Part shown: positions 13-63,779 of the stretch, piece by piece
Layout of the letters: each line of letters opens with the position of its first letter
Numbering within the stretch: the stretch's first letter is position 1
Assembly: GCF_900095705.1 (NCBI RefSeq)
Contig: NZ_LT608324.1
Coordinates: 1 to 64,000 of the forward strand
Direction of reading: 5' to 3'
Source: Fusobacterium massiliense
GTDB lineage: Bacteria; Fusobacteriota; Fusobacteriia; Fusobacteriales; Fusobacteriaceae
Length of the DNA: 64,000 bases
Position numbers and translations under genes: made by a program
Notes under the pieces: model-generated
What the model saw: the letters and a program-made list of their open reading frames with translations, nothing else
What the model was told of the DNA's origin: nothing
Databases searched by the model: none

Positions 13-1519
<1,507 letters not shown>

Positions 1520-18532: not shown

Positions 18533-18550
18533 AAACTTTTAATTATTCCT

Positions 18551-18629
18551 CCATCGATCAGGCATTAGCACCACACTTTTGCAGGTTGCTGAGACTTCAC
18601 TGGGCCTGTCCCTCCGTCTCTCTTTATGG
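18551..18629 (-). ncRNA. SAM-I (S-box) riboswitch aptamer
   Basis: On the minus strand the S-box core is clear: AGAGAGACGGAGGGACAGGC, then CCAGTGAAGTCTCAGCAACC, then GTGTGGTGCTAATGCC. P1 is closed by CCAT (18626-18629) with ATGG (18551-18554). It should bind S-adenosylmethionine and stop transcription of metF-metH when SAM is abundant. The aptamer boundaries are approximate by a few bases. Confidence 0.93.
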
Positions 18630-18647
18630 TTTTTTTTATTAGGAAAA

Positions 18648-56292: not shown

Positions 56293-57636
56293 TTATTTTA
56301 TTTTATCTGTATAACTTTTAAATTTAGTAATTTCATTTAAGAAAAGTAACTTAATTGTTCCAACAGCACCATTTCTATGTTTTCCAATTATAAGTTCACT
56401 TATTCCTTTATTCTCAGTTTCCGGTATATAGTAATCCTCTCTATACAAGAAAGCAACTATATCAGCATCTTGTTCTATTGCTCCCGATTCTCTTAAATCT
56501 GAAAGCATTGGCCTTTTATCCATTCTTTGCTCAACGCTTCTTGAGAGTTGTGATAAAGCTATTATTGGTACATTTAACTCTCTTGCCAACCCTTTTAAAG
56601 CTCTCGATATATCTGAAACTTCTTGTTGTCTATTAAATTCTCCCCTAGACACTCTCGTTCCATTTATTAATTGTAAGTAATCTATTACTATTAAATCTAA
56701 TTTATCATTACTTTTCATTTTTCTAGCATAAGATCTTATCTCCAATACATTTGTATTTGGCAAATCTGCAACAAATATATTTTTTGAAGATAAATTTCCC
56801 ATAGAAAAAGCCATTCTTGCCCATTCATCTTCTGTAAGATTACCCATTTTTATCTTTCCTTGACCAATTTCACTTTCCATAGCAAGTAATCTTTGATATA
56901 GTTGTTGAGCTGGCATTTCTAAACTAAATATTAATACATTTTTATTAGAAATATTTGCTGCATTTAAAGCTAAGTTTAAAGCAAAAGCTGTCTTTCCCAT
57001 TGCAGGTCTAGCTGCTAGAATTATTAAATCCGAATTATTTAGTCCCCCTGTCATTCTATCTAAATCAACAAAACCTGTTGGGATTCCTAAAATTTTATCT
57101 CTATTTTTTCTCATCTCATCAAGTCTTGTCAATTCATCAACAGACAAGGAACCTATATTTATTATCTCGCTTTTTAATATTTTATTAGATAAATTTAAAA
57201 CCATTTCTTCAGCTTTATCTACTATGGAATCTGCTGTTCCTTCTTCTCTATAAGCTATCTCTGTTATCTTAGCTCCAATATTACCTAATTTTCTAAGCAT
57301 AGCTTTTTCTTTTATTAGCTCTGCATATTCCAATAAATTATATGAGCTTGTAATATCTTCTAATATTTCACTCAAAACTTCTTGAATTTCTTCCTTATTT
57401 TTAAAATTACTTCTTTTGATTTCATCAGCAACTAAGACAGGATCTATTCCTCTACTCTCAGAATGTAATTTATTCATAAGCTCAAAAATAGCACTGTTTT
57501 CTGAGTTATAAAAATCATCTGCTCTTACTAAATCTTGTATCTCATCAAAAATTTCATTATCATAAAATATCCCCCCTATCAAAGCTTTTTCAGCTTCTAA
57601 ACTATGAGGAATTTTTTGTAAAATACTTTCTTCCAA
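56293..57636 (-). CDS. dnaB: Replicative DNA helicase DnaB
   Basis: A hexameric helicase for the replication fork. At 447 residues, the N-terminal domain (LPHSLEAEKALIGG-like: IPHSLEAEKALIGGIF) is followed by the RecA-like core GIPTGFVDLDRMTGGL, Walker A AARPAMGKTAFAL (about 208-220), Walker B LIVIDYLQLI and LSDLRESGAIEQDAD. The start is TTG, with AGGAGG 5 bases upstream. It follows rplI, as in many Firmicutes. Confidence 0.96.
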   Translation of the reverse strand: MEESILQKIPHSLEAEKALIGGIFYDNEIFDEIQDLVRADDFYNSENSAIFELMNKLHSESRGIDPVLVADEIKRSNFKNKEEIQEVLSEILEDITSSYNLLEYAELIKEKAMLRKLGNIGAKITEIAYREEGTADSIVDKAEEMVLNLSNKILKSEIINIGSLSVDELTRLDEMRKNRDKILGIPTGFVDLDRMTGGLNNSDLIILAARPAMGKTAFALNLALNAANISNKNVLIFSLEMPAQQLYQRLLAMESEIGQGKIKMGNLTEDEWARMAFSMGNLSSKNIFVADLPNTNVLEIRSYARKMKSNDKLDLIVIDYLQLINGTRVSRGEFNRQQEVSDISRALKGLARELNVPIIALSQLSRSVEQRMDKRPMLSDLRESGAIEQDADIVAFLYREDYYIPETENKGISELIIGKHRNGAVGTIKLLFLNEITKFKSYTDKIK

Positions 57637-57664
57637 GATATCCTCCTAAAATTTTTTAGTTATT

Positions 57665-58114
57665 TTACTTAGAAACTATATTTACTTTTAATATAGCTTT
57701 AACATCTGCAAATAATTTTATACTAACTTCATCTGTTCCCAATGATTTTATATTTGCTTCTATTTTCTTTTTATCTATATCCAAATTCAATTCTTCTTTT
57801 ATTTGGCTAGCTATTTCTTTGCTAGTTATAGCTCCAAACAATTTTCCATTTTCTCCAGATTTTACTGATATAGTTAAAACTTTTCCTTCTAGTATTTTTT
57901 TTACTTCTATAGCTTTTTGTCTTTCTTCTTCGTGTTTTTTAGCTTCTTTTTTCTTTCTATTTTCAATTTTTTGTAATTCTTCAGCAGTTGCTAACACAGC
58001 CTTTTTATTTTTTAATAAAAAATTATGAGCATATCCATCAGATACACTTACTATTTCTCCTTTTCTTCCTTGTCCTGCTACATCTTCTAAAAGTATTACT
58101 TGTATTTTTGCCAT
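57665..58114 (-). CDS. rplI: 50S ribosomal protein L9
   Basis: A 149-residue ribosomal protein. The N-terminal signature LEDVAGQGRKGEIVSVSDGY, then NFLLKNKKAV, is typical. A long charged helix (about 45-80) leads to the C-terminal domain with GKLFGAITSKEIA. GGAGG precedes the ATG. It lies in the yybS-type gene, rplI, dnaB order. Confidence 0.97.
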   Translation of the reverse strand: MAKIQVILLEDVAGQGRKGEIVSVSDGYAHNFLLKNKKAVLATAEELQKIENRKKKEAKKHEEERQKAIEVKKILEGKVLTISVKSGENGKLFGAITSKEIASQIKEELNLDIDKKKIEANIKSLGTDEVSIKLFADVKAILKVNIVSK

Positions 58115-58127
58115 TTTTTTACCTCCG

Positions 58128-58958
58128 TTATATTTTTATATCTCTACTTTCTATTACATCAAAACTCATTAAAGCTCCAAATACAAATGCAATCATAGGA
58201 TAAAATACTCCTATTCCTATACTAATTATATGCTTTAATATATTTGATTTTACATTTAAACCATCTAAAAAACCGTATATACATTTTATTCCATACCACA
58301 CAAATATAAATCTTGTTATATCTAATATATTTGCTGATATTATTGTACTTTCAATATTTAAAAATTGTTGTCCAAAAACTATAGCCATAAAAGGCAATAA
58401 CCAATAGCAAGATAAAGTCCAATGCTTATATGTATTAGCTCCTAATGAAAAAAATAAAAAAATATTTGCTAAGAATATATAACTAAATATGCTTGGGATT
58501 ATTGTAGCTTTTAATAAATCCATAGACATAATCACTTTTACTTCTGATACAAAATTACTATCCATTTTTTCTAACATATGTACTGCTGATTGCAAACTTG
58601 TAAATAAAAAATTTCTATCTATATACAAGTAAGCTAGCACTGCTCCAGAAGAAATCAATGACATTATAACTATCCTATCATAAGGTCCTATTCCTTTTAA
58701 TTGTAGCTTTGCAACAATTCTTAACAAAATTTCTGTTAAAAATGGAATAATAATATATAGTATCATTAATCTTATATTTATCAAACCTAGAACTATTAAG
58801 ACTAAAGCATTTACTAAACTTGCATATTTTCTACCATATATTCTTACTTTTGTTATTCTATAATACGGAACTAAATAGCTAAATACTGGCACTAAAAGGG
58901 ATATGAAAAAATATATAACTATCGTTGCTACTGATGAAATAAATTTTAAAATAGCCAT
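58128..58958 (-). CDS. DUF2232 (YybS-like) membrane protein
   Basis: A 276-residue protein with about eight hydrophobic segments and no recognisable catalytic motif. Its place directly before rplI and dnaB is the same as that of yybS, a DUF2232 protein, in Firmicutes, and its size and helix layout agree. The function is unknown. AAGGAGG precedes the ATG. Confidence 0.72.
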   Translation of the reverse strand: MAILKFISSVATIVIYFFISLLVPVFSYLVPYYRITKVRIYGRKYASLVNALVLIVLGLINIRLMILYIIIPFLTEILLRIVAKLQLKGIGPYDRIVIMSLISSGAVLAYLYIDRNFLFTSLQSAVHMLEKMDSNFVSEVKVIMSMDLLKATIIPSIFSYIFLANIFLFFSLGANTYKHWTLSCYWLLPFMAIVFGQQFLNIESTIISANILDITRFIFVWYGIKCIYGFLDGLNVKSNILKHIISIGIGVFYPMIAFVFGALMSFDVIESRDIKI

Positions 58959-58976: not shown

Positions 58977-60434
58977 TTAATTTCTTCCTGTAAGATAATT
59001 TTCTACATTTCTAAGAAATTCTTCTTCACTGTTTCTTTTATCTTTTTTTCTAGAATCTTTAGCCAATTCAAATTCTATATTTAAATTTGGTTCTTCAAAA
59101 AATTCTCTTATTATTACTGTGAAATCCTCTTTATATTCATTTGTTTCCATAGTTTCTTTTATAAAAGCCCACTTCGAATCTTCATAAATTATTGTTAGAA
59201 TATTATCTTCTATCTTATATGGACTAGCTCCCATTAAATATACTTTATAGTATATTGCATGAGAAACAGCACTTTCAAGAAAATCTTTCCAATTAGCTTT
59301 TACATCTGATAGACTTATTTTTACATTACTTTTCTTTGTTTTAGCCTCTTCATGTATTTGATATTTAGAGTCAGGCTCCGAAATGTATTTAACCTTAACT
59401 TCTTCTTTTTTAGGTTTTAATTTTTCTAAAATATCTGCTATTATAACATATCCTACAAGTTTTTTATCTTCTTCAAACTTAAATTTTCCTAAAACATCAT
59501 AAATTATAGATATTATTTTTAGCCCCTTATCTATATCAAGCATATTTTTTACAATACTATTTTTACAATATTTAGCAAAATCTTTAAAAAACAATTCTAA
59601 ATCAAAAGATTCAGATGATAATTTTTCTAATTCATCTATTATATCACATTCTTTTCCAACTAAAACTTTTTCTAAAAAGTTTTTTATTCTTGAACTAGGA
59701 GTTATGCCTAAAGTTTCTTCTGTAGTTTTTAAATCTATTTTTTCTCCGTTTGTTGCAACTATAAGTCTTTCCAAAATAGAAATTGAATCTCTCATACTTC
59801 CAGTTGCATTTTCATAGATTATTGGAAAGACTTCTTCTTCAGCACTAAAACCTTCTTCTTTTAAAATATATTCAAGTCTGTTTTTCATTTCTTCCAAACT
59901 TAAAGTTTTAAAATCATATCTTTGACATCTTGATATAATTGTAGGTAATATTTTATCTAATTCAGTAGTTGCCAATATAAATAAAACATGAGCAGGGGGC
60001 TCTTCTAAAGTCTTTAAAAGTGCATTGAATGCTTCTTTTGTTAGCATATGTGCTTCGTCTATTATATAGACTTTTTTTAATCCTTCAACAGGTTGATAAT
60101 TAATTTTTTCTTTTAAGTTTCTTATTTCTTCGATACTCCTATTTGAAGCAGCGTCTATTTCTATCAAGTCTGCAAATCTTCCTTCATTTATTGCTTGACA
60201 ATTTTTACATTCATTGCAAGGCTCTCCATCATCATGAAGATTTAAACAATTAACTCCTTTTGCTATTAATCTAGCTGTTGTTGTTTTCCCAACACCACGA
60301 GGTCCTGAAAAGAGATAAGCATGAGCCATAGAATTATTTTTTAAAGATAATTTTAAAGTCTTCACTATTTCATTTTCTCCAGAAATTTCAGAAAAATTAG
60401 CAGGTCTATATTTCCTATAAAGTGTTATATGCAT
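58977..60434 (-). CDS. dnaX: DNA polymerase III subunit gamma/tau
   Basis: A clamp-loader ATPase of 485 residues. Walker A GPRGVGKTTTAR is near residue 44, followed by zinc cysteines (CLNLHDDGEPCNECKNC). DEAHMLTKEAFNALLKTLEEPP carries Walker B (split after LTKE), and the sensor ISRCQRYDF includes the arginine finger. The C-terminal part is Lys/Glu-rich. No convincing programmed frameshift site was found. It lies 3 bases from the upstream regulator gene. Confidence 0.95.
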   Translation of the reverse strand: MHITLYRKYRPANFSEISGENEIVKTLKLSLKNNSMAHAYLFSGPRGVGKTTTARLIAKGVNCLNLHDDGEPCNECKNCQAINEGRFADLIEIDAASNRSIEEIRNLKEKINYQPVEGLKKVYIIDEAHMLTKEAFNALLKTLEEPPAHVLFILATTELDKILPTIISRCQRYDFKTLSLEEMKNRLEYILKEEGFSAEEEVFPIIYENATGSMRDSISILERLIVATNGEKIDLKTTEETLGITPSSRIKNFLEKVLVGKECDIIDELEKLSSESFDLELFFKDFAKYCKNSIVKNMLDIDKGLKIISIIYDVLGKFKFEEDKKLVGYVIIADILEKLKPKKEEVKVKYISEPDSKYQIHEEAKTKKSNVKISLSDVKANWKDFLESAVSHAIYYKVYLMGASPYKIEDNILTIIYEDSKWAFIKETMETNEYKEDFTVIIREFFEEPNLNIEFELAKDSRKKDKRNSEEEFLRNVENYLTGRN

Positions 60435-60437
60435 TTT

Positions 60438-61832
60438 CTACTCCAAATCATAATTATTCATCTTAGTTCTTAAAGTATTTCTTGTTATTCCCAATAACTC
60501 AGCCGTTTCAATTTTTTTACCATTTGTTATTTCCAACACTTGTTTTATTAGTTCTTTTTCAACTCTTGATATAACTTCATAATAGTAATCCGAATTTTTA
60601 TTATCCAATCTTAACTGCCCCAGTTCATTTTTAATAAGAGTTTCAAGTGAAATATTTCTTGCTTCTTCAGTCAAACTTAAAAGTTTTTCACCCATAACAT
60701 TTGGTGGTAAATCTTCTAGTAAAATACTTCCACCTCTTGCCATTGCAACTGCATATTTTATAGCATTTTTAAGTTCATTTACATTACCCGGCCAATCATA
60801 TCTCATTAGTTTTTTTAAGGCAACTTTACTAATTCCTTTTATATTCTTGTTCATCTCTTTATTACATTCGGCTATATAATGGTCTACAATAAAAGGAATA
60901 TCTTCTTTTCTTTCCCTTAAAGTAGGAATGTCTATTTCTAAAACCTTTAATTTTCTATAAAGTTCATCTATAAATAAACCTTTGCTTATTAATTCTTCTA
61001 AGTTGGCACTTGTCGATGCAATTATCCTCACAAAAGCATTAATAGGTTCTCCTGCCCCTAATCTAAAAAATTTATTCTCTTCTAGTAAAAATAGTATATT
61101 TGATTGCATTTCTAAGCTAAGAGATTCTACATTTGCTAAATGTAATATTCCTCCTTCAGCTTTTTCCAATTCTCCATATTGACTATATACTGCACCTTCA
61201 AAAGATCCTTTCTCATAACCAAATAGTTTTCTTTCAAGTAATGTTGATCTATAAGAATTACAATTTATACTTATAAGTGGTTTTTTATTTACAAAGCTAA
61301 ATTGGTGTATAGCTTTAGCAACACTAGTTTTACCAGTTCCTCTTTCTCCACTGACTAATACAGGAACAGAACTACTTGCTACCTTACCTATAACTTTATA
61401 TAAGTTTACCATTGCTTTACTACGACCTATTAATTTATCTCCCATTCCTATAGATTTATCAACTTTTTCTGCAAGTATTTTATTATCTTTTACAGATTTT
61501 TCAACAATTTTTACTATTTCTTCTTTTTTTTCTGGTTTTAAAATATAATCATAAGCACCAGCTTTAATACTTCCAGCTATAACTCCTAGATTAGATGTTT
61601 CCCCAAGTATAATAATGACAACTCTTTTTTGAATTTCTAATATTTTTGTAATTAAATTTATAAGTGCATCTTCCTTAGAATTTTTTTCATCAATCAAAAT
61701 TGCATCAAATTTCTTTGATTTTATTGCCTCCATAAAGTTTATAACATTATCGACAAATACTAATTCATTTTCAAAGTTATCTTCAAACTCCATTTTTAGA
61801 TCATTTTCTAGACGAAGACCTAATAATATCAT
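60438..61832 (-). CDS. NtrC-like AAA+ regulator with degenerate motifs
   Basis: A 464-residue protein with receiver-like (1-120), AAA+ (about 135-370) and Fis-type helix-turn-helix (ETAELLGITRNTLRTKM, about 445-461) parts. The receiver keeps Asp48 (AILIDEK) but lacks the N-terminal acidic pair. In the AAA+ domain Walker A is fine (GERGTGKT, about 162-169), but the GAFTGA loop reads GSFEGA (209-214), Walker B reads ILHLANVES (about 229-237) where LFLDEIGE is usual, and the arginine-finger segment reads FIDELYRKL. It may therefore be a DNA-binding regulator that does not drive sigma-54. It lies between tonB and dnaX. Confidence is high for the fold and low for activity. Confidence 0.82.
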   Translation of the reverse strand: MILLGLRLENDLKMEFEDNFENELVFVDNVINFMEAIKSKKFDAILIDEKNSKEDALINLITKILEIQKRVVIIILGETSNLGVIAGSIKAGAYDYILKPEKKEEIVKIVEKSVKDNKILAEKVDKSIGMGDKLIGRSKAMVNLYKVIGKVASSSVPVLVSGERGTGKTSVAKAIHQFSFVNKKPLISINCNSYRSTLLERKLFGYEKGSFEGAVYSQYGELEKAEGGILHLANVESLSLEMQSNILFLLEENKFFRLGAGEPINAFVRIIASTSANLEELISKGLFIDELYRKLKVLEIDIPTLRERKEDIPFIVDHYIAECNKEMNKNIKGISKVALKKLMRYDWPGNVNELKNAIKYAVAMARGGSILLEDLPPNVMGEKLLSLTEEARNISLETLIKNELGQLRLDNKNSDYYYEVISRVEKELIKQVLEITNGKKIETAELLGITRNTLRTKMNNYDLE

Positions 61833-61844
61833 TTTTCCTCCTTC

Positions 61845-62714
61845 CTATTTAAAATCAAAATTATAATCTAAATAAAAAGTCCCATTTACTGCTTTTCCAC
61901 CTTTTAGCAGCTCTACTCTCCAAGAACCCATAACCCTTTCAACTGCTGCATCTATCTCAGGAACACCACTACCATTAACTATCGAATAAGATAAAACATT
62001 CCCCATTTTATCAACCTTTAATTGTACTCTTATTTTCCCATGTTTTCCCGACTGTCTTGCACTTTGTGGAAACTCTGGCTTTCTATTTCTGTCACTCCAG
62101 TTCACTAAATAGCCCTTTTCAGATGTTCCCATCTTACTTCCAGATACTAATCCATTACTATAATTTACATTTTTTAATACTCTATCCACTACTTCTTCTG
62201 TTTCTGAAGATGGACTGTATCCACCATTAGGATTTCCAGCAATTTTAGGTTTTGATTGAGAAATTTGCTTTTTTAAATCGGCAAGTGATGGTTTCTTTTT
62301 TTCCACCTTTTCTTCTTTTGTTGTTTTTTCAATTTCTTTTTTTTCTTCTTTCTTTTTCTCTTCTTTTTTCTCAATTTCTATAGTCTTTTCTTCTTTAGAA
62401 ATTTGCTTTTCTTCCTTAGGTTGTTTTTCTGTTTTCTTTTCATTAGTAACTTCTTTTTCATCAATTTCTTTTTCAGTTTCAGCTTGTTCACCTTTTTTTT
62501 CTATGCTGGTTGCATCTAAATTTTGTTCTTTAGCATCTGCATTCTTTTCAGCTTTAAATTGAGTTGAAGCACCTGTTTCCATAGCAACTAAACCTATTTT
62601 TATTTCATCTGCTTGGGTTAAACTTTCATCTTTTTTATACACAGTAAGAGCAAATATTATAGCCACATTTATAGCAATTGATAAAACTAAACAAATTAAA
62701 TCATTTTTTTTCAT
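61845..62714 (-). CDS. tonB: TonB-family energy transducer
   Basis: A 289-residue inner-membrane protein. One N-terminal helix (LICLVLSIAINVAIIFAL) is followed by a long Lys/Glu-rich spacer (about 60-160) to cross the periplasm, then a C-terminal TonB domain with SARQSGKHGKIRVQLKVDK and YSIVNGSGVPEIDAAVERVM. It transmits force from ExbB-ExbD to outer-membrane receptors. The start is the ATG at 62714 with GGGTG before it. The exbD stop lies at the ribosome site. Confidence 0.93.
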   Translation of the reverse strand: MKKNDLICLVLSIAINVAIIFALTVYKKDESLTQADEIKIGLVAMETGASTQFKAEKNADAKEQNLDATSIEKKGEQAETEKEIDEKEVTNEKKTEKQPKEEKQISKEEKTIEIEKKEEKKKEEKKEIEKTTKEEKVEKKKPSLADLKKQISQSKPKIAGNPNGGYSPSSETEEVVDRVLKNVNYSNGLVSGSKMGTSEKGYLVNWSDRNRKPEFPQSARQSGKHGKIRVQLKVDKMGNVLSYSIVNGSGVPEIDAAVERVMGSWRVELLKGGKAVNGTFYLDYNFDFK

Positions 62715-62719
62715 TTTTA

Positions 62720-63160
62720 TCACCCATTTTTTATTGTGGTATCAATATTTATAGCACTTGCTCCTGCTTCTTTAAGTAAACTCATTATTTCTACAATAAA
62801 ACCATAATCTATACTCTTATCTGCTGATATTACTACATCTTTATTATCTGAAGCATTTAATTTGTCACTAACAAAATTTAAAAATTCTTCCAAAGTAACT
62901 TGTTCTTGATTATTTTTTGCTCCATCATCATATTTCACATATATATTTTTATCTTTATCTATAAGGATTTGAACTTCTTTTAAAGTACTTTTAGTTTTAG
63001 CAACAGTTGACTTTGGTAAGTCTATTTTAAAGGCTGCTGTATCATCAAAAGTAGTCGCCAACATAAAAAATATTAAAAGAAGAAACACTACATCTATAAG
63101 TGGAGTTATCTCAAGAATAAGGTCTCCCCCACTTCTTCTTTTTATTCTATCTATTTTCAT
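62720..63160 (-). CDS. exbD: Biopolymer transport protein ExbD
   Basis: A 146-residue protein with one N-terminal helix carrying the conserved aspartate (ITPLIDVVFLLLIFFML, about 18-34) needed for proton flow. A periplasmic domain follows (VVISADKSIDYGFIVEIMSLL). TAGGTAAAG precedes the ATG. It is part of exbB-exbD-tonB. Confidence 0.94.
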   Translation of the reverse strand: MKIDRIKRRSGGDLILEITPLIDVVFLLLIFFMLATTFDDTAAFKIDLPKSTVAKTKSTLKEVQILIDKDKNIYVKYDDGAKNNQEQVTLEEFLNFVSDKLNASDNKDVVISADKSIDYGFIVEIMSLLKEAGASAINIDTTIKNG

Positions 63161-63167
63161 ACTTTAC

Positions 63168-63779
63168 CTACTCTCTGAAATAATTTAATAACTCTGTTGA
63201 AGTTTTTTCTATATCACTTACTATCAAATCAATTCTTTTATTAAAATAGTTATAAAACATCATACAAGGAATGGCTACAATAAGCCCTCCTGCTGTTGTG
63301 TATAAAGCTTCAGAAATCCCTTTTGCAAGAACTGCTGCATCTCCTGTTCCATTTACTGATATTGAGTTAAAAGCAGTAATCATCCCTGTTACTGTTCCTA
63401 ATAAACCAAGTAAAGGAGATGTATGAGCTGCCATTGAAAGTAGCCACATATTTCTTTCTAATAATTTTATCTGTTCTATTGCTTTTTCCTTTCCTTTTTC
63501 TTCTAAAGCTGATAAACTTTCTTTATTTTCTTTATAACCATATACTAAAATATCTTTCAACACACTTGATGTCGATGATTTATTCGAGTTAAAATAAATT
63601 ATTGCCTCTTTAATTTTACCCTCTTTAATCATTTCTTTTACTTCAGATGGTAATTTTGTAAAATTACTTCTTTCTTTTAATATAAAATATGAAAATCTTT
63701 CTAAAACTGCATAAAGTCCAATTATCCCCATTAAAAGGATAACATACATCAGTGCTCCACCTGCATTAAGTATTTGCAT
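63168..63779 (-). CDS. exbB: ExbB/TolQ/MotA family proton channel
   Basis: A 203-residue protein with three helices: one near the N-terminus (LMYVILLMGIIGLYAVLERF) and two at about 110-175, where GLLGTVTGMITAFNSIS and YTTAGGLIVAIPCMMFYNYF carry the family signature. It forms the motor complex with ExbD and powers TonB. GAAAGGA lies before the ATG. Confidence 0.95.
   Translation of the reverse strand: MQILNAGGALMYVILLMGIIGLYAVLERFSYFILKERSNFTKLPSEVKEMIKEGKIKEAIIYFNSNKSSTSSVLKDILVYGYKENKESLSALEEKGKEKAIEQIKLLERNMWLLSMAAHTSPLLGLLGTVTGMITAFNSISVNGTGDAAVLAKGISEALYTTAGGLIVAIPCMMFYNYFNKRIDLIVSDIEKTSTELLNYFRE

What the first reader, a model, noticed from the sequence alone, without database searches (positions are those of the whole stretch)
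60438..61832. NtrC-like protein that has lost almost every activating motif
The acidic receiver pair is missing, GAFTGA is GSFEGA, Walker B LDE is LAN, and the arginine-finger segment is altered, yet Walker A and the Fis-type helix-turn-helix are well kept. This pattern suggests a conserved DNA-binding protein turned into a pseudo-enhancer-binding protein, perhaps acting with sigma-70 like TyrR. It sits inside an operon joining iron-type transport (exbBD-tonB) with dnaX.
Basis: partly seen in the sequence, partly recalled or inferred. Interest (0 to 1): 0.68.

Follow-up and report, generated by a model that had tools for sequence, protein, structure and literature searches.

The report
Motor-dead NtrC relative beside dnaX
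This gene encodes a relative of the ATP-driven activators that switch on sigma-54 promoters; its whole lineage has lost the parts needed to burn ATP and touch sigma-54 but keeps the ATP-binding loop and the DNA-binding end, even in relatives with no sigma-54 at all, so it has probably been rebuilt as an ordinary DNA-binding regulator of housekeeping promoters.

Summary
Window 60438-61832, minus strand, encodes a 464-aa receiver-AAA+-Fis protein with GSFEGA for GAFTGA, LAN for LDE, both arginine fingers and sensors I and II changed, and Walker A and the helix-turn-helix kept. 56 orthologues were compared; 51 form a core clade in one family. In all 51 the Walker B acidic pair is replaced (G/A then N/S) and the first arginine finger is gone. 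Some replacements are themselves fixed (E236 and E290 in 51/51). All domains are under strong purifying selection. 48 of 50 loci checked keep dnaX directly downstream, with exbB-exbD-tonB upstream. One orthologue from another family, in the same slot, is intact, so the ancestor was probably a real sigma-54 activator. The window's genome has rpoN, but in a module with its own intact activator. At least seven well-covered orthologue-bearing genomes lack rpoN by three searches. Best reading: a sigma-54-independent, ATPase-dead DNA-binding regulator of sigma-70 promoters. Targets, sign and signal are unknown; footprinting found no site. The kind is known (TyrR, HupR, VpsR); a 2011 survey already noted Thr-to-Glu in a Fusobacterium nucleatum EBP without sigma-54. 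New here: extent of loss, fixation, the intact relative, retention after rpoN loss.

The parts
60438..61832 (-). The gene: 464-aa pseudo-bEBP (pseudo-receiver, AAA+, Fis-type HTH)
61479..61832 (-). N-terminal pseudo-receiver (residues 1-118): beta-1 acidic pair absent, acceptor D48 present here but E in 28/51 relatives, K99 kept
60723..61439 (-). AAA+ (sigma-54 activator-type) domain and lid, residues 132-370
61326..61349 (-). Walker A GERGTGKT (162-169); G162, G165, G167, K168 invariant in 56/56
61191..61208 (-). L1 loop GSFEGA (209-214) in place of GAFTGA; Thr position is E/K/F/P/T/Q/N/A/S across the family
61131..61145 (-). Walker B LHLAN (230-234): D->A, E->N; core family G/A at 233 (51/51), N at 234 (50/51)
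61008..61010 (-). Sensor I Asn position, S275
60948..60974 (-). Arginine-finger segment FIDELYRKL (287-295): R288I (50/51 I), R294K (41/51 K, 9/51 R)
60771..60785 (-). Sensor II NVNEL (350-354): R352N (35/51 N; R kept in 8/51)
60441..60581 (-). Fis-type HTH (418-464), TNGKKIETAELLGITRNTLRTKMNNYDLE; most conserved part, 0.81 mean identity between genera
61845..62723 (-). tonB (TonB_C), operon neighbour upstream
62720..63160 (-). exbD
63168..63779 (-). exbB
58977..60434 (-). dnaX, 3 nt after the stop of the gene; adjacent in 48 of 50 loci checked
56293..58958 (-). Rest of the run: membrane protein of unknown family (58128-58958), rplI, dnaB

Best explanation
A sigma-54 activator of the NtrC type, sitting between tonB and dnaX in the ancestor, was converted into a sigma-54-independent DNA-binding regulator. 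SHOWN: sigma-54-contact and ATP-hydrolysis residues are replaced across the core family, Walker A and HTH are kept, selection is purifying, the gene order is old, and the protein persists where rpoN is absent. INFERRED: it binds but does not hydrolyse nucleotide; the AAA+ domain serves as a nucleotide-stabilised oligomerisation scaffold that arranges Fis-type HTH dimers on DNA; the pseudo-receiver gives a protein- or ligand-controlled input rather than phosphorylation; and it represses or recruits sigma-70-type RNA polymerase, in the manner of TyrR, HupR or Rhodobacter NtrC. Targets and sign are not known; envelope-energy genes of its own operon are plausible but no site was found there.
For: Motif loss shared by 51 core orthologues: Walker B D->G/A 51/51, E->N/S 51/51, finger 1 R->I/S 51/51, Thr of GAFTGA changed in 47/51. 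Replacements are fixed rather than drifting: E236 51/51, E290 51/51, N234 50/51, I288 50/51. Walker A invariant 56/56. HTH identity 0.81 against AAA 0.65 and REC 0.46 between genera. dN/dS (NG86) about 0.007-0.13, including 0.015-0.020 among three genomes without rpoN. rpoN absent by two Pfam domain models and a protein query in G003, G007 (one contig), G010, G011, G015, G026, G033, which keep the gene. In those genomes the other NtrC-like proteins recovered also lack GAFTGA. Syntenic intact orthologue G038 with rpoN gives direction. Family monophyletic, SH-aLRT 100. Operon heads carry a TGnTATAAT-type -10 in most genomes and no convincing -24/-12.
Against: No target, DNA site or expression data. 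The dyad search upstream of the operon gave nothing convincing beyond shuffles for GC-containing words. HTH conservation is no higher than in a paralogue used as control (0.82 against 0.89), so it shows kept DNA binding, not exceptional constraint. The gene is dispensable over evolution: in G004 and G017 tonB is directly followed by dnaX. rpoN is present in the window's own genome. Nucleotide binding is uncertain with Walker B Asp and sensor II Arg gone.
Confidence: 0.7

Rival explanations
1. It still works with sigma-54 in genomes that have rpoN, as an ATPase-dead partner that binds or poisons intact bEBPs, or co-binds their enhancers.
For: The window's genome has rpoN and one intact bEBP. 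Four core members have GAFTGA (G073, G074, G076, G077). The AAA+ fold is kept.
Against: Motifs are equally lost with and without rpoN. G007 (no rpoN, single contig) and G019 (rpoN) have 95% identical proteins with dN/dS about 0.02. The own-genome rpoN and intact bEBP form a divergent module of their own with palindromes and a -24/-12-like site.
Confidence: 0.1
2. Obligate hetero-oligomer with the second GAFTGA-less paralogue (461 aa, C5:29.5k), which keeps ATPase residues in most species, like HrpR/HrpS (comparison from memory).
For: Both are kept in most genomes of the family, including those without rpoN; one has hydrolysis residues, the other only Walker A.
Against: They are separable: G004 and G017 keep the paralogue without the gene; G003 (listed 100% complete) keeps the gene, and no paralogue of this type was recovered there.
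Confidence: 0.08
3. Architectural, Fis-like DNA-binding protein tied to replication (dnaX, dnaB neighbours) rather than a promoter regulator.
For: dnaX starts 3 nt after its stop in several genomes; operon with rplI and dnaB; Fis-type HTH.
Against: Full bEBP-type architecture retained, as in specific regulators; dnaX persists without it.
Confidence: 0.07
4. Decaying gene kept only for expression of dnaX.
For: Loses catalytic residues; absent in some lineages.
Against: dN/dS about 0.01-0.13, all frames open, new residues fixed, 48 invariant columns.
Confidence: 0.03

Closest known systems
Putative EBP of Fusobacterium nucleatum ATCC 25586 noted by Francke et al. 2011 (PMC3162934)
   Same: EBP homologue without sigma-54 in the genome, Thr of GAFTGA replaced by Glu; sigma-70 dependence suggested. 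Probably a member of this family: of the two EBP-like proteins usual in rpoN-less relatives, only this one shows Glu there.
   Different: That survey's main text reports only the Thr->Glu change and calls it an orthologue of PhhR; our family has a receiver-like N-terminus, not ACT-PAS. Its supplements were not readable here, so identity is inferred.
NtrC of Rhodobacter capsulatus and Caulobacter (via PMC10274813)
   Same: NtrC-type protein without GAFTGA acting at sigma-70 promoters; Rhodobacter NtrC needs ATP binding rather than hydrolysis.
   Different: Those have a deletion in L1 and a phosphorylated receiver; Caulobacter NtrC needs its Walker B Asp. Here L1 is substituted and the receiver and ATPase residues are lost.
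TyrR / PhhR
   Same: GAFTGA-less bEBP descendants working with sigma-70.
   Different: ACT-PAS N-terminus; the window protein scores 174 against a TyrR cut-off of 576.
VpsR / FleQ
   Same: bEBP-type proteins acting at sigma-70 promoters.
   Different: They are controlled by c-di-GMP; no GGDEF protein is found in the window's genome.
Aquifex NtrC1 (PDB 1ny5, 4l4u)
   Same: Best structural relative, receiver-AAA+ architecture.
   Different: All catalytic and sigma-54-contact residues intact.

Membership tests
sigma-54 bEBP (NtrC family) | GAFTGA loop | tested here: not met
   GSFEGA; Thr replaced in 47/51 core members
sigma-54 bEBP (NtrC family) | Walker A | tested here: met
   GxxGxGK invariant 56/56
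sigma-54 bEBP (NtrC family) | Walker B DE | tested here: not met
   AN here; G/A plus N/S in 51/51
sigma-54 bEBP (NtrC family) | Arginine fingers | tested here: not met
   R288I, R294K
sigma-54 bEBP (NtrC family) | Fis-type C-terminal HTH | tested here: met
   HTH_8 3.5e-12
sigma-54 bEBP (NtrC family) | rpoN in the genome | tested here: inconclusive
   Present in own genome, absent in at least 7 well-covered orthologue-bearing genomes
TyrR/PhhR | ACT-PAS N-terminus | tested here: not met
   Response_reg instead; below TyrR cut-off
TyrR/PhhR | Acts with sigma-70 RNA polymerase | not testable with these tools
   Needs biochemistry or genetics
sigma-70 NtrC (Rhodobacter, Caulobacter type) | Phosphorylatable receiver | tested here: not met
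   Acidic pair absent; acceptor D or E
sigma-70 NtrC (Rhodobacter, Caulobacter type) | L1 loop deleted | tested here: not met
   Loop length kept, residues substituted
VpsR/FleQ | c-di-GMP control | tested here: not met
   No GGDEF protein in G000, G002, G003, G007, G019

The most novel reading that the evidence does not exclude
A family-wide regulator in which the AAA+ motor was turned into a nucleotide-gated, non-hydrolysing oligomeric scaffold with its own fixed signature (GE[KR]GxGK ... L[GA]N[IV]E ... FI[DE]EL), with an intact orthologue in the same operon slot, so the switch from sigma-54 to sigma-70 regulation can be replayed step by step.
Probability: 0.35. Interest if true: 0.65.

Novelty: new variant of a known kind. 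Interest (0 to 1): 0.45.

Why it matters
Sigma-54 activators that have changed sides are known one by one, but rarely with the starting form preserved. Here one orthologous gene in a fixed operon position runs from intact through partly eroded to fully motor-dead forms, in genomes with and without sigma-54. That makes it testable which losses free such a protein from sigma-54 and what the retained Walker A loop is for.

Tried and rejected
Relatives in genome contigs: the single scan found only one weak archaeal hit. Single-sequence AlphaFold model: pLDDT 33, unusable, not searched; an alignment-based job was not sent because loci from the genome search are not on that tool's list of allowed inputs. 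DNA-site discovery upstream of the operon: only AT runs, with GC-containing dyads at shuffle level. Sigma-54 promoter scan of the operon loci: only weak matches. c-di-GMP as ligand: no GGDEF protein in the window's genome. Obligate partnership with the paralogue: presence and absence are separable. 'HTH unusually frozen': dropped after the paralogue control. XibR (NtrC-family iron regulator) as a model: it keeps GAFTGA and the receiver aspartates. G013 is not counted as rpoN-less: it is a draft that also holds a GAFSGA/LDE bEBP fragment.

Full report
WHAT IS THERE. The finding's interval is an ORF of 464 aa on the minus strand. Pfam and PDB searches give a receiver-AAA+-Fis architecture closest to Aquifex NtrC1. 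Sensor I (N275S) and sensor II (R352N) are changed as well. In the literature, GAFTGA mutants in most cases fail to activate transcription, and R299 of NtrC1 and the Walker B Glu are the gamma-phosphate-sensing residues (PMC7175178), so loss of all these predicts no sigma-54 remodelling.

ORTHOLOGUES. A protein search over 61 genomes of the same family found strong matches in 52; a phylum-wide search with the intact orthologue added three other families. I extracted 56 sequences, 51 of them in the core clade. Walker B is [GA][NS] in 51/51 and finger 1 is I or S in 51/51; the GAFTGA Thr is kept in only 4/51, and those four still have a dead Walker B. E236 and E290, where intact proteins have G and D, are invariant: the replacements are conserved, not noise. 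Identity between genera is 0.46 for the receiver, 0.65 for AAA+ and 0.81 for the HTH; a paralogue shows a similar ranking, so this says DNA binding is kept and no more. Pairwise NG86 dN/dS is about 0.007-0.13; several dS values exceed 1, so exact ratios are rough but all are far below 1.

DIRECTION OF CHANGE. G038, from another family of the order, has GAFTGA, LDE, both arginine fingers and sensor II intact, in the same slot (exbB-exbD-tonB-gene-dnaX), with rpoN in the genome. Rooted on outgroups it branches first in a clade with SH-aLRT 100, but long branches make the deep order unsure. Others are eroded differently: G037 APFSDG/FEE, G020 and G008 with no trace of the loop and KK/KE, G097 NFEG/FED. 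These different patterns suggest more than one loss, or loss by different routes. The missing acidic pair is shared by G038, so the receiver was probably decoupled before the motor.

SIGMA-54. The window's genome has rpoN. Beside it lies an intact 571-aa bEBP and a divergent catabolic operon with a -24/-12-like sequence TGGCATAATTCTTGCT and TTATCATTTTGATA-type palindromes: apparently a closed module that needs no second activator. Across relatives, rpoN is missing by PF04552 (above cut-off), PF04963 and a protein query in G003, G007, G010, G011, G015, G026, G033 and, in less complete drafts, G001, G016, G027; all keep the gene. The protein query is weaker than the profiles for divergent RpoN (G022: 2.9e-17), so the two profiles carry most weight. 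In the seven better genomes the other NtrC-like proteins recovered also lack GAFTGA. G007 (single contig, no rpoN) against G019 (same genus, rpoN) is the cleanest pair: proteins 95% identical, dN/dS about 0.02. Thus the protein cannot depend on sigma-54 in those species, and its sequence is under the same constraint with or without it.

CONTEXT. Of 50 loci checked, 48 have dnaX directly downstream; exbD and tonB lie upstream wherever the contig reaches. Further upstream are a small secreted protein, a large TPR protein and a DUF116 protein. The operon head has a TGnTATAAT-type -10 in most genomes. Two genomes without the gene (G004, G017) have tonB followed directly by dnaX: it can be lost without breaking the operon. 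In F. nucleatum, carbenicillin is reported (as unpublished data) to induce tonB-exbB-exbD, and a tonB deletion affects growth with carbenicillin (PMC11705814); whether that is this operon was not established here.

PRIOR KNOWLEDGE. Francke et al. 2011 (PMC3162934) noted an EBP in F. nucleatum ATCC 25586 with Thr->Glu in GAFTGA and no sigma-54, and suggested sigma-70 dependence. That is probably a member of this family. TyrR, DhaR, HupR, VpsR and alphaproteobacterial NtrC are known sigma-70 counterparts. The kind is therefore known; the class-level orthologue series, the combined loss of L1, Walker B, fingers and sensors with fixed replacements, and retention across rpoN loss are what this adds.

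JUDGEMENT. Sigma-54 independence: about 0.93. No ATP hydrolysis: about 0.85. DNA-binding regulator at sigma-70-type promoters: about 0.75. ATP-binding scaffold role of Walker A: about 0.5. Targets and signal: unknown.

Noticed in passing
own genome C5:29504-30811 (L044:3493-4878, minus): A second NtrC-like paralogue (461 aa) with GAFLGA; orthologues have GAFPGA, GAFSGA, GTFIGA and similar, usually with intact Walker B and arginine fingers, and persist in genomes without rpoN. A second bEBP line that may have left sigma-54.
   Followed up: partly
own genome C5, L045:1-8284: rpoN next to the only intact bEBP (571 aa, PrdR-like), divergent from a four-gene catabolic operon with a sigma-54-like promoter at L045:5129 and repeated TTATCATTTTGATA-type palindromes: apparently a one-operon sigma-54 system.
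   Followed up: partly
window 7059, 9865, 12519, 14064, 20811, 28335, 34864, 45959, 49383 (core positions): A dispersed inverted-repeat element of roughly 70-110 nt (core AGTCTCTGACGTCCGTATTAGTTCGAAGAGCCTGTGTTCATTGAGCTCGTAGAACTCATACGGCTGTCAAGAGACT), 9 copies in 64 kb, no Rfam match; two more copies flank the DUF116-TPR genes upstream of this operon.
   Followed up: partly
window 13-1518 (minus) and 18548-18632 (minus): 16S rRNA gene and a SAM riboswitch.
   Followed up: no
window 58128-58958 (minus): Conserved membrane protein between dnaX and rplI with no Pfam or NCBIfam match.
   Followed up: no
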